Shown piece by piece: positions 1,214-5,622 of a stretch of DNA of 13,015 nt. The DNA is from Cryomorphaceae bacterium (GTDB lineage Bacteria; Bacteroidota; Bacteroidia; Flavobacteriales; Crocinitomicaceae). Location of the stretch: the NCBI GenBank assembly GCA_021298235.1, contig JAJTDX010000092.1:1-13015 (forward strand). The letters are read 5' to 3'. How positions within the stretch are numbered: position 1 is the stretch's first letter; each line of letters begins with the position of its first letter. A program made the position numbers and the translations under genes. Below the pieces are notes generated by a model. That model had not been told where the DNA came from, did no database searches, and saw nothing but the letters and a program-made list of their open reading frames with translations.

Positions 1214-1953
1214 AAATTGTAGTCAATTTTCCAGAGGAAAAGTCCATGAGCTGGAACGGAAGTCGCGGCCGCACCTCTGTTTCTAGCGTCTAGAATTGTA
1301 CGAATTTCTTCCGGAGCGATGTTCTTCCATCCAACCTCCAAAAGTGTGCCCACCGTGGAGCGAACCATATTTCTGAGAAAACGGTCAGCTGATATTTCAA
1401 AATACCAACTCGTTTCACTTACTTGGTGCCATTTGGCATGTGTAAGTGTACAAATATTGGTTTTAACATCCGTATGAAGCTTTGAAAGCGATGTGAAATC
1501 TTGGGTGCCAAGGAAAAATTCAGCAGCCTGATTCATCAGGTGAAAATCTGGTACATTAGGGATGTAGAGATGACTTTCAGTTTTGAACGGATCTTTTTCC
1601 TGGCAAACATAATAGCGGTATGTCCGGGATAGAGCATCAAAGCGTGCATGAAAATCACATTTAAAAATCCGTTTTACTGCAATAGATTCTGGCAGCATGC
1701 GGTTCATTTTAAACTTGAAATGCTCGAGATCTGAAAGCACTTCATGATTCTCCAAATCTACGTGAAAAAAATATTGATTTGCGTGAACACCTGTGTCCGT
1801 TCTTCCACACCCTACTATTTCAATTTTCTTATTGGAATATATGCTGGAGACACATTGTTCTATGGTCTCTTGAACGGACGACTGTTCGGGTTGTCTTTGC
1901 CATCCGAAGAACAATTTTCCGTTGTAGGCTATTTCAAAGAAAAATCGCTGCAC
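1210..1953 (-). CDS. truA: tRNA pseudouridine synthase A
   Basis: This 247-residue protein is of normal TruA length. TruA converts uridines at positions 38-40 of the tRNA anticodon stem-loop to pseudouridine. The hallmark GRTDTGVHA motif is present, with the catalytic Asp at residue 53 (D60 in E. coli). The N-terminal FEIAYNG..FFGWQ and C-terminal FLRNMVRSTVGTLLEVG segments also match the family. The start is GTG. It is preferred because the family's first strand begins within a few residues of it and no ATG lies upstream in frame. The bases just before it are pyrimidine-rich (TTTCTTCCTCC), so there is no Shine-Dalgarno sequence. The gene lies 19 bases downstream of the TPR-PD40 gene and is probably cotranscribed with it. 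Family TruA motifs usually read GRTDAGVHA; the Thr here is a mild variant. Confidence 0.96.
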   Translation of the reverse strand: MQRFFFEIAYNGKLFFGWQRQPEQSSVQETIEQCVSSIYSNKKIEIVGCGRTDTGVHANQYFFHVDLENHEVLSDLEHFKFKMNRMLPESIAVKRIFKCDFHARFDALSRTYRYYVCQEKDPFKTESHLYIPNVPDFHLMNQAAEFFLGTQDFTSLSKLHTDVKTNICTLTHAKWHQVSETSWYFEISADRFLRNMVRSTVGTLLEVGWKNIAPEEIRTILDARNRGAAATSVPAHGLFLWKIDYNF

Positions 1954-1972
1954 GGAGGAAGAAATAATCTGC

Positions 1973-3340
1973 TTATTTCGAAGTAGGGATAGCGAAATCC
2001 GTCGTGTCTACCTGATAAATGTCCATACTCGCTTTCTGTCCGATGATTTGAAAACTTGAAAGAACAGCTTTATTAAGTGCCGGATAGTATTGGAAATGAG
2101 TGTCATTGTTCACCGAATTGAACTCAATTCCCAAATTCACGGGTGTACCCCATGTTCCACCTTTATTTTCAACTACATAGATGTCAAATCCACCCATGCC
2201 TTCCATGCCATCAGAGCTGTAGAATAAAAATCTTCCGTCTCCGGTGATGAAAGGAGTGGTTTCTCTTCCTACAGTATTAATTGGTGCCGGAAGTGGTTTT
2301 GCTTCTCCCCAATTTTTTCCATTTTTGGTTACCGCGTAAATGTCTGTTCCAGATTTGTCTCCCTTGCGGTCAGAAACAAAGTACATCGTATTCATATCAT
2401 CTGTCATTGTTGCGGCACCCTCAAAAAATGAGGTATTGATAGTTTTGTTGTTTATCCTCTTTGGAGTTGACCACTTATTCTTGTTAGTCATTTCAATTGT
2501 AAAGATGTCCGAACCTTTGGTTGGTTTGCTGCTTTCAATGGCGGTGTTATTAAGAGTCATTAAACCATACAAACCATCTTTTGAAATAAAATTAATAGCG
2601 TCAAACCCTTCAGAGTTAACGCGACCAAGCTCATTACTTATAGAATCCCAATCGCTAATCTCATCATTCCAGACGGCAAAATAGGTATCTTCAAAAAATT
2701 CTTGATCATCCGGATTCATATTCCCTCCCTTCGTATCACTGCGTCGCGAGACAAAATAGATGGTTTTTCCACCTTGGGTGAGAATTGGGCAGTAATCATT
2801 GTACCCGGAATTAATTGCACCCATAGACTCTTTCTTGGCTAATTTTCCAGAAGACATTTGTGCTTTCGCGAATTCACACTGTTTGATGCGCAATTCCAAT
2901 TGTAATTCTTTTACTCTCCCTGCTGAAAGCATTGAAATGGCCATGTTGTAATTCACTAGTGCCGAATCTATATTTCCAATTCGGTGATATGACCTCCCTA
3001 GCAATTCGTACACATCTTTATCGACTTCATTTTTATCAAGTTCGACAGCTTCTTTAGCATATTTCAATGCAAGTCCGTAATTATTTTGCTGGTAATGACA
3101 TTGTCCTACCCAATAAGCACCACGCCAATTGTTGGGGTCTTTTACCGAAGCTTGTCTGAATTGGACAAGTGCGTCACGTACTTTGCCTTCATTGAAAAGT
3201 CCTTTTCCTTTTTCTATTAGGGTCAATGCAGCTGTTTTGTCAACGAGAGTGGTAAGGGTATCCGGGGGTAAACTTTCTGCAAGTGCAGCATTCACAAAAA
3301 AAAGCGCACATACCGATAGGGAGACAATTCCTTTGATCAT
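1973..3340 (-). CDS. Periplasmic TPR and PD40 beta-propeller protein
   Basis: This 455-residue protein has a Sec signal peptide at residues 1-22 (hydrophobic core, ALA-ES cleavage region). There is no lipobox cysteine after it; the only Cys in the signal, at residue 11, is inside the core. About three TPR units follow (roughly 38-71, 72-105 and 109-142), e.g. AYWVGQCHYQQNNYGLALKYA. From about residue 178 there is a WD40-like PD40 propeller with repeated blades of the type GKTIYFVSRR, MNTMYFVSDR and GRFLFYSSDG, each followed by a (G)xDIY segment. This TPR+PD40 order is the front half of Bacteroidota envelope proteins such as the T9SS component PorE, which end in an OmpA domain; here the OmpA domain is absent. 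The function is therefore open: probably a protein-protein scaffold in the periplasm. It lies 76 bases after the EI24 gene and 19 bases before truA. Confidence 0.85.
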   Translation of the reverse strand: MIKGIVSLSVCALFFVNAALAESLPPDTLTTLVDKTAALTLIEKGKGLFNEGKVRDALVQFRQASVKDPNNWRGAYWVGQCHYQQNNYGLALKYAKEAVELDKNEVDKDVYELLGRSYHRIGNIDSALVNYNMAISMLSAGRVKELQLELRIKQCEFAKAQMSSGKLAKKESMGAINSGYNDYCPILTQGGKTIYFVSRRSDTKGGNMNPDDQEFFEDTYFAVWNDEISDWDSISNELGRVNSEGFDAINFISKDGLYGLMTLNNTAIESSKPTKGSDIFTIEMTNKNKWSTPKRINNKTINTSFFEGAATMTDDMNTMYFVSDRKGDKSGTDIYAVTKNGKNWGEAKPLPAPINTVGRETTPFITGDGRFLFYSSDGMEGMGGFDIYVVENKGGTWGTPVNLGIEFNSVNNDTHFQYYPALNKAVLSSFQIIGQKASMDIYQVDTTDFAIPTSK

Positions 3341-3416: not shown

Positions 3417-4226
3417 TTACTTTTCCGTCGCTTCTGTTGATATTTTTATAGAATCCTTCTCAAGTTCTGCCATACACAAGGTTGCTGCGAGGATACCAAT
3501 CAAAGGAGATAAAGCTCTGGAAAGCCAAATGAACATGTCTTTCATACCGGTGAGTGAATCAAAAGGAAAAGGCGCAGCGGTTGGAAAAAGTATGCTTAAT
3601 GAAAAGCATGCACCAATGGAAAGGGCAATTCCTTTATGACTTTTAATGAAAGAAATACATTGGTGGTAGTTTAGTTTTTTTCTTTCCAAAGAATAATCTA
3701 AAAAGTTAAAGCCATAAAAATAGGCGCCAAATACAAAAGTTCCAAGTCTGAAAATTACTTTTTCACTTTCCCCTAATAAACTAATTGTGAACAGGTACAG
3801 TATCAAGATCCAGAATGAATATAAGATAATATTTCTTAGACTCAAGCGTGCGGCACGAAGTACATCTTTTAAAAATTGAAACAGTTCAAAAGGGGTGTCT
3901 TTTCCGGAAATCAATTTTTCACATCGTTCGCTGTAATACGTAAATAGTGGGGTTAGAATCAATGGCGCAAGAAAATTTCCCAAGGCAAACATGAGAATTC
4001 CAAGAATCGTTTGGAACGTAATGGCTATCCATGCCCAAAATATTCCTATTGTGGAATTTGCTTCAGCAATTTTCTCAGTTGGGAGAATCAATTCATTTCC
4101 CGTATTTAAAATGATTGCGATAAGTATGGGCAGTATGGCAAATGAATATAATCGATACCTGAAAAATAACGGTACTGCTTTCAGAAAGACTTTGAATCCA
4201 AGAATAAGGTGGCTCCATTTTGGCAT
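3417..4226 (-). CDS. EI24 domain-containing integral membrane protein (CysZ-like superfamily)
   Basis: A polytopic membrane protein of 269 residues from the ATG at 4224-4226. Visible EI24-family traits are the opening amphipathic stretch (LILGFKVFLKAVPLFFRYRL) before a first membrane segment beginning at ILP, a long second hydrophobic segment ending in PLILTPLFTYYSE, a cytosolic-looking basic segment (LKDVLRAARLSLRN), and the later FGAYFYGFNFLDYSLERK motif. Family members include CysZ, a sulfate transporter, but most Bacteroidota members have no known substrate, so no transport role is assigned. An in-frame GTG at 4260-4262 would add 12 residues; the ATG is preferred because homologues begin close to the amphipathic stretch. 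The stop lies 76 bases upstream of the TPR-PD40 gene on the same strand. It is divergent from purB, with 93 bases between the two starts. Confidence 0.75.
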   Translation of the reverse strand: MPKWSHLILGFKVFLKAVPLFFRYRLYSFAILPILIAIILNTGNELILPTEKIAEANSTIGIFWAWIAITFQTILGILMFALGNFLAPLILTPLFTYYSERCEKLISGKDTPFELFQFLKDVLRAARLSLRNIILYSFWILILYLFTISLLGESEKVIFRLGTFVFGAYFYGFNFLDYSLERKKLNYHQCISFIKSHKGIALSIGACFSLSILFPTAAPFPFDSLTGMKDMFIWLSRALSPLIGILAATLCMAELEKDSIKISTEATEK

Positions 4227-4229
4227 CTT

Positions 4230-4237
4230 CAAAAATA
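4230..4237 (-). promoter_or_regulatory. Candidate -7 element directly before the EI24 gene
   Basis: The minus strand reads TATTTTTG, a full match to the Bacteroidota -7 consensus TAnnTTTG, ending only three bases before the ATG at 4226. If functional, transcription would begin at or next to the start codon and give a leaderless message. No TTG is visible 17-23 bases upstream, and the region is AT-rich, so chance is a real alternative. Confidence 0.3.
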
Positions 4238-4279
4238 GGAAATAGAGCAGGTACAGCCACACTACGTCTATGGAAATAT

Positions 4280-4319: not shown

Positions 4320-5622
4320 ATGTCCACATCCAGTCTTACTGCCATTTCACCTGTTGATGGTCGGTATCAGTCTAAAACACAAGAACTACAGTCCTATTTT
4401 TCAGAATATGGACTAATTCGCTACAGGGTAATCGTGGAAGTGGAATATTTTATCGCGCTCGTTTGTACGCGTCTCACTCCCTTAGAAGACTTTCCAATGG
4501 AGAAGATGGAAGATTTGAGAATGATTTGCGTAAACTTTTCGGAAGAGGATGCCCTTTGGATCAAGAATACCGAAAAAGTGACGAATCATGATGTGAAAGC
4601 TGTTGAATATTTTCTGAAAGAAAAGTTGAATGAGTTGGGCCTGGAGAAATATGCTGAATTCGTGCATTTTGGTCTAACATCTCAGGATATAAATAATACC
4701 TCTGTTCCGCTTTCTTTGAAGGAAGCTATTCATGAGCAATACTTTCCGCTAATGAGGAAAGTGCTCGACAAGCTAACTGCAATGCAGGAGGAGTGGAAAG
4801 ACATTCCTATGCTGGCTCGTACGCATGGTCAACCCGCATCACCGACACGTTTAGGAAAGGAAATTAAAGTTTTTACGGAGCGATTAAGTATTCAATTACA
4901 GCAGCTCGAACCAATAAAATACGCAGCAAAATTTGGGGGCGCAACAGGAAATTTTAATGCACATTACGTAGCTTACCCCTCCTATGATTGGGTGTCTTTC
5001 GCTAATTCTTTCGTTAATTCCATTCTTGGATTGAGCCGAAGTCAAACTACCACGCAAATCGAACATTATGACAACCTTGCTGCACTCTTTGACTGTTTGA
5101 AGAGGATCAATACCATCCTTCTTGATTTGAATCGTGACATGTGGACCTATATTTCGATGGACTATTTTAAACAGAAATTGAAGGAAGGAGAAATTGGTTC
5201 GTCATATCGGCGTAGCAAATGCCTTGTTCGAACATCTTTCCGCTAAATTGCCAGTTTCCAGATTACAAAGGGATCTGACCGATTCAACCGTATTAAGAAC
5301 GATCGGGTTGCCTATGGCGCATACGTTTATTGCAATCAAATCCACCCTCAATGGCCTTGATAAATTGTTGCTAAACAGAGATGCCTTCGAAAGCGATCTT
5401 GAAAAGAACTGGGCGGTTGTAGCTGAAGCAATTCAAACAATATTAAGACGAGAAGGATTTCCGAAACCTTACGAAGCTTTAAAAGGGTTGACCCGAAAAA
5501 ATGAGGCGGTAACAAAAGAAACAGTGCATTCATTTATCGATCAATTGAATGTTTCGGAGGAATTAAAGGCAGAATTAAAGGCAATAACCCCTTCAAACTA
5601 TACCGGCATCGATCTGGTATGA
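4320..5622 (+). pseudogene. purB: Adenylosuccinate lyase, broken by an internal deletion of about 50 bp with frameshift
   Basis: Adenylosuccinate lyase acts twice in purine metabolism: on SAICAR, and on adenylosuccinate to give AMP. The ATG at 4320 opens MSTSSLTAISPVDGRY, typical of the family; the TTG at 4299 is less likely. The first 295 residues are intact, with TNHDVKAVEYF, the TSQDINN loop, ARTHGQP (catalytic His 169; H171 in E. coli) and GGATGNFNAH. The frame reads GEIGSS up to 5204, then shifts and stops at TAA 5244-5246. Normal sequence resumes in another frame at 5206 (IGVANALFEHLSAKL, QRDLTDSTVLRTIG) and runs cleanly to 5622. The 17-residue loop expected between GSS and IGVAN (AMPHKVNPIDFENSEGN in the family), including the catalytic Ser region, is absent. 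Restored, the protein would be about 450 residues, the usual length. It is either a recent null mutation or an assembly error. The stop overlaps the next gene's start (ATGA). Confidence 0.9.
5202..5208 (+). other. Deletion junction in purB
   Basis: The last base that fits the upstream frame is 5204 (TCA, second Ser of GSS), and the downstream frame resumes with ATC at 5206. One base (T 5205) is left of the 51 bases expected to encode the 17 missing residues, so about 50 bp are lost, which accounts for the frame change. The A at 5204 could come from either flank, so at most one or two bases of microhomology are visible. Confidence 0.85.

What the first reader, a model, noticed from the sequence alone, without database searches (positions are those of the whole stretch)
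4320..5622. purB has lost exactly its catalytic signature loop through a deletion of about 50 bp
Both flanks encode well-conserved adenylosuccinate lyase. The 17 residues expected between GSS and IGVAN, the most conserved signature of the fumarase/aspartase superfamily carrying the catalytic serine region, are missing, and the frame shifts at 5204/5205. No other stop or frameshift is visible in the gene, so the event is recent or artificial. If real, the cell cannot make AMP from IMP by this route and must salvage adenine or carry a second purB. That would point to host or community dependence.
Basis: partly seen in the sequence, partly recalled or inferred. Interest (0 to 1): 0.7.

Follow-up and report, generated by a model that had tools for sequence, protein, structure and literature searches.

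The report
purB gap, probably an assembly artefact
One purine-synthesis gene in this environmental bacterium's contig lacks just the 50 bases that are most alike between related species, which points more to an assembly error than to a bacterium that has lost the enzyme.

Summary
Confirmed: purB (4320-5622) is open on both sides of 5204/5205, and 50 nt present in relatives are absent there, which shifts the frame. The loop is present in 80 of 80 related loci and in the 120 listed protein hits; the two nearest proteins, 96% identical, are intact. No whole genome is held, so a second purB, purA or apt could not be sought in this organism.

The missing 50 nt is rank 1 of 1295 50-nt windows of purB for DNA conservation among 80 relatives. 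In one of 150 related genomes two contigs end inside the same stretch with a 21-nt overlap. The junction has at most 1 nt of homology. I judge an assembly or sequencing artefact most likely (0.78) and a recent real null allele the main rival (0.17); no reads were available to decide.

Host dependence is not supported.

The parts
4320..5204 (+). purB N part, 295 codons, ending in the GSS that opens the signature loop (E. coli Ser295 equivalent at 5199-5201)
   Evidence: NF006764 1-296/456 and TIGR00928 hits; Lyase_1; 96% identical to P0001 and P0002
5204..5205 (+). junction; 50 nt present in relatives are absent here, at most 1 nt of homology as judged from relatives
   Evidence: alignment; 51 nt versus 1 nt between the two parts in six relatives; 17 residues in 80 of 80 loci; codons at the edges in 80 relatives
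5205..5246 (+). frame-shifted tail of 13 residues and stop that follow the N part
   Evidence: sequence and ORF list
5206..5622 (+). purB C part, 138 codons plus stop, in the other frame
   Evidence: ASL_C; NF006764 314-447/456; no stop inside

Best explanation
The gap is most likely an artefact of reconstruction. The organism's purB is probably intact, and the 50 nt that are most alike between related species were lost when the two flanking sequences were joined. Shown: what is lost, that it is the most conserved 50 nt of the gene, that relatives are intact, and that one related assembly breaks inside this stretch. Inferred: that a branch was closed wrongly here (a scaffold gap closed or its Ns removed, a chimeric read, or some later edit of the sequence). 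I could not show which of these happened.
For: The missing stretch is rank 1 of 1295 overlapping 50-nt windows of the purB alignment by mean pairwise DNA identity among 80 relatives (0.863; median 0.695). Among 3145 of 3160 pairs (those at most 90% identical), exact shared k-mers cover it 5.9 to 9.3 times as densely as the rest of the gene at k 21, 27, 31 and 41; the peak lies inside it at k 21, 27 and 31. In G055, one of 150 family genomes, purB is cut between two contigs that both end inside this stretch, sharing exactly 21 nt. In G132 two Ns and a frame break lie about 12 codons before GSS. The loop is present in the 120 listed hits (best 120 of 8000 scored): 118 with the exact 16-residue motif, 2 with one residue changed; and in 80 of 80 loci. 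The two nearest, 96% identical, are intact. Third-position share of differences from 80 relatives is 0.596 (N part) and 0.637 (C part), against 0.590 and 0.608 among the relatives. The junction has 0-1 nt of homology judged from relatives. Literature: homologous genes of related species behave like repeats for assemblers (PMC3436815, passages); conserved regions give branched graphs that are split (PMC11479545, passages); many bacterial pseudogene calls are assembly errors (PMC11017572, abstract).
Against: No reads were available. A plain de Bruijn break should leave part of the shared stretch on each contig end, as it does in G055, so losing all 50 nt needs a further step that I did not see. 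No Ns are in the window. The rank test was made after the deletion was known. At k 41 the peak of shared k-mers lies outside the stretch (column 837; the stretch is 888-937), and fewer than half of the pairs that share a k-mer share one touching it (415 of 1135 at k 21, 155 of 358 at k 27, 73 of 204 at k 31, 19 of 65 at k 41). purB of other related genomes is cut at other places, so G055 alone is an anecdote. The window has 8 unique residues in 433 columns, against 4 (P0001) and 7 (P0002), and 3 of the 8 are unseen in the 118 other listed hits, against 0 of 4 and 1 of 7, which slightly favours relaxed selection.
Confidence: 0.78

Rival explanations
1. Real, recent deletion: a strain or subpopulation carries a null purB and takes adenine or other purines from its surroundings (or has a second purB elsewhere).
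For: The deletion is clean, the window's other genes are open, and apt passes its cut-off in 5 of 7 related genomes searched, so adenine salvage is possible in the group. Three of the window's 8 unique residues are unseen in the 118 other listed hits.
Against: The loss coincides with the most conserved 50 nt. No flanking repeat supports replication slippage. 142 of 150 family genomes have purB over the cut-off; of the other 8, 3 have fragments, 4 only weak hits and 1 none, in assemblies of unstated completeness. Each of 7 relatives searched has one purB over the cut-off.
Confidence: 0.17
2. Recoded or split enzyme: a +1 frameshift at 5204/5205, or translation of the C part from the TTG at 5194, gives a loopless or two-piece but working lyase.
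For: The TTG at 5194 opens an ORF of 142 aa that holds the C part, and a purine-rich stretch precedes it (sequence).
Against: The purine-rich stretch is explained by coding for KEGE; 54 of 80 relatives have EGE at the same place in an unbroken gene. The lost loop holds the strictly conserved Lys (S. aureus Lys268, 2.8 A from a succinyl carbonyl; mutagenesis of the equivalent Lys in B. subtilis decreased activity significantly) and Asn270 (PMC2917274 passages). None of the 120 listed hits lacks the loop.
Confidence: 0.02

Closest known systems
Adenylosuccinate lyase PurB (NF006764 / PRK09285, E. coli type)
   Same: Both parts match the model in order, with 96% identity to two intact homologues over the N part.
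   Different: Model positions 297-313, the signature loop, are absent and the frame is broken.
Spurious pseudogenes and gene breaks in short-read or metagenome assemblies (PMC11017572 abstract; PMC3436815 and PMC11479545 passages)
   Same: An otherwise normal gene broken once, at sequence shared between species; one related assembly breaks inside the same stretch.
   Different: What I saw of those reports concerns breaks, chimeras, frameshifts and internal stops; a clean 50-nt loss without Ns was not described there, and its step is not shown here.

Membership tests
PurB (NF006764) | Match to N-terminal lyase part and ASL_C part in order | tested here: met
PurB (NF006764) | Single open frame of about 450 aa | tested here: not met
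   frame changes at 5204/5205
PurB (NF006764) | Signature loop with conserved Lys and Asn | tested here: not met
   17 residues absent; residue roles from PMC2917274 passages
PurB (NF006764) | Catalytic serine (E. coli Ser295) | tested here: met
   codon retained at 5199-5201; chain position, role
Assembly artefact | Loss coincides with DNA shared between species | tested here: met
   rank 1 of 1295 windows; k-mer peak inside the stretch at k 21, 27 and 31, outside it at k 41
Assembly artefact | Reads disagree with the contig at the junction | not testable with these tools
   no reads held; no whole genome held
Real pseudogene | Relaxed selection on the remaining parts | tested here: inconclusive
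   codon-position pattern like that of relatives; 8 unique residues against 4 and 7 in sisters, 3 of them unseen elsewhere against 0 and 1; a recent loss would show the same
Real pseudogene | Loss of other purine genes or other decay in the genome | not testable with these tools
   no genome held for the window

The most novel reading that the evidence does not exclude
A real, very recent knock-out of purB in a population of Crocinitomicaceae-like bacteria, which makes it unable to build purines de novo and dependent on purines released by neighbours, in a group where 142 of 150 genomes searched have purB over the model's cut-off.
Probability: 0.15. Interest if true: 0.4.

Novelty: not a real feature. 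Interest (0 to 1): 0.1.

Why it matters
Mainly a caution: the most conserved motif of a housekeeping gene is also the DNA most alike between related species, so a clean loss of just that motif in a contig of unknown, probably metagenomic, origin should be suspected before any auxotrophy is inferred. If it were real, it would be a case of purine dependence caught at its start.

Tried and rejected
Second purB, purA or apt in the same genome: no genome is held. Missing loop elsewhere in the window (inversion, split, cassette): no match to its core. In the 120 listed N-part hits (best 120 of 8000 scored) and the 120 listed C-part hits (of 7724) none was marked as the window's own product, so these lists neither confirm nor deny the deletion. 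A genome of the same species: the best of 240 family genomes is 83% identical in protein (3 of 240 matched at E 1e-160), and the best of 80 loci 82%, so exact junction homology could not be read from a sister's DNA. Replication slippage: no repeat pair flanks the junction. Start points of 120 C-terminal fragments as a map of assembly breaks: 103 of 120 start with Met, 45 at residue 280 and 25 at 297, so gene callers' choice of start dominates; not used. Eleven rows show stops inside the match; all eleven have open frames of 450 aa or more, so I took the stops to be the natural end read through, without inspecting them. Structure prediction was not run, since a model would not decide between artefact and deletion. 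A first view that P0054 and P0098 lack the loop (note) was wrong: each has it with one residue changed; P0054 has a different C-terminal end. Papers seen: PMC2917274, PMC3436815 and PMC11479545 as passages; PMC11017572 as abstract and section list; the remaining titles as search listings only.

Full report
What is there. The window carries purB on the + strand. Its first 295 codons (4320-5204) and last 138 codons (5206-5619, stop 5620-5622) are each open and match adenylosuccinate lyase in order: NF006764 positions 1-296 and 314-447 of 456, Lyase_1 and ASL_C in Pfam. Aligned with seven intact homologues, 17 residues are missing between GSS and IGVAN; 80 of 80 related loci have 17 residues there. 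In the six relatives printed the two parts lie 51 nt apart; here they lie 1 nt apart, so 50 nt are missing and the frame changes. The upstream frame adds 13 residues and stops at 5244-5246.

Whose it is. No whole genome is held for the window. Relatives by protein are Crocinitomicaceae and other Flavobacteriales, mostly metagenome-assembled genomes, some under doubtful names. truA, a TPR/PD40 protein, an EI24/CysZ-like gene, purB, a 528-aa ORF, lnt, an OmpA-family protein and the right-edge gene occur in the same order in L005, L006, L022 and L024. These four have about 2.1-2.2 kb between truA and the TPR/PD40 gene that the window lacks; of 26 loci with both genes, 13 have at most 100 nt there, 2 have 257 and 579 nt, and 11 have more than 2 kb, so this spacing varies naturally. 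The six complete neighbouring genes have no stop inside; the two edge genes are cut by the window's ends, and the left one had a hit in only one of the 80 loci. So, apart from the gap, purB lies in its usual surroundings and no other break is seen.

Are relatives intact? The two nearest homologues, 96% identical over the N part, have the loop. Of the 120 listed hits (best 120 of 8000 scored) 118 carry the exact 16-residue motif and two carry it with one residue changed; one of those two, P0054, is 357 aa long with a different C-terminal end. All 80 loci carry it. Of 150 family genomes 142 have purB over the cut-off; of the 8 others, G132, G136 and G148 have fragments, G068, G103, G134 and G138 have only weak hits, and G028 has none. 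Seven relatives, picked from the 80 loci, have one purB each over the cut-off; two of them also show a weak second hit. In the same seven, purA passes in 6 and apt in 5.

What the loss would do. PMC2917274 (passages) gives PurB two reactions, SAICAR to AICAR and adenylosuccinate to AMP, and discusses Ser262 on a mobile loop (E. coli Ser295), the strictly conserved Lys268 and Asn270. In the alignment with PDB entry 2pts chain position 295 is the first S of GSS. I take chain numbering as residue numbering; 2pts has the length of 2ptr, which that paper names as E. coli PurB. This serine remains in the window at 5199-5201, while the Lys and Asn that follow are lost. With the frame broken as well, no working enzyme is expected (inference). 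A real loss would stop de novo purine synthesis, not only IMP to AMP.

Real or artefact? Three facts favour an artefact. First, the missing 50 nt is the top window of 1295 for DNA identity among 80 relatives (0.863 against a median of 0.695). Shared exact k-mers pile up there: at k = 21 mean coverage is 205 pairs against 30 elsewhere, at k = 27 94 against 10, at k = 31 49 against 6.5, at k = 41 14.7 against 2.5, among 3145 of 3160 pairs at most 90% identical; at k = 41, however, the peak lies outside the stretch. A chance deletion has no reason to pick this stretch, though I made the test after knowing the place. Second, in G055 purB is divided between two contigs that end inside this same stretch with a 21-nt exact overlap; G132 has two Ns and a frame break shortly upstream. 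Other family genomes are cut at other places of purB, so this shows that assemblies can break there, not that they do so more often. Third, the junction has at most 1 nt of homology, judged from the codons of relatives, unlike slippage between repeats.

Against this: there are no reads, and a plain graph break would leave part of the shared stretch on each side, so an added step (gap closing, N removal, a chimeric read or an edit) has to be assumed. Selection tells little: both halves show codon-position patterns like those of the relatives, and the window has 8 unique residues in 433 columns against 4 and 7 in its sisters, 3 of the 8 unseen in 118 other hits against 0 and 1. A very recent real loss would look the same.

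Verdict. The sequence observation is right. Published work reports assembly trouble at homologous or conserved sequence (PMC3436815 and PMC11479545, passages) and many false bacterial pseudogenes from assembly (PMC11017572, abstract).

Noticed in passing
P0224 (public protein, 140 aa): A PurB fragment that starts MLFRS before mid-gene sequence; these letters fit the end of an Illumina adapter read in frame (adapter recalled, no call), so a public contig seems to begin with adapter.
   Followed up: no
window 3417-4262 (-): The EI24/CysZ-like membrane protein next to purB is only 28-31% identical to its counterparts in four relatives, while the other complete genes are 52-83% identical and the right-edge gene 33-43%: fast change.
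   Followed up: no
window 1973-3340 (-): TPR/PD40 protein resembles the CHU_0125/PorE family models but stops before their C-terminal third; L005, L006 and L024 have open frames of similar length, 458 aa, so this looks natural.
   Followed up: partly
window 1953-1973: truA and the TPR/PD40 gene are adjacent here; 11 of 26 loci have more than 2 kb between them (in L005 a 668-aa ORF), 13 have at most 100 nt: a gene present in some relatives only.
   Followed up: partly
L081:1141-1142 (G132): Two Ns and a frame break inside purB shortly before the signature loop in a related public genome.
   Followed up: partly
G068, G103, G134, G138, G028: Five of 150 family genomes show only weak hits or none to the PurB model; not checked whether these are incomplete assemblies.
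   Followed up: no
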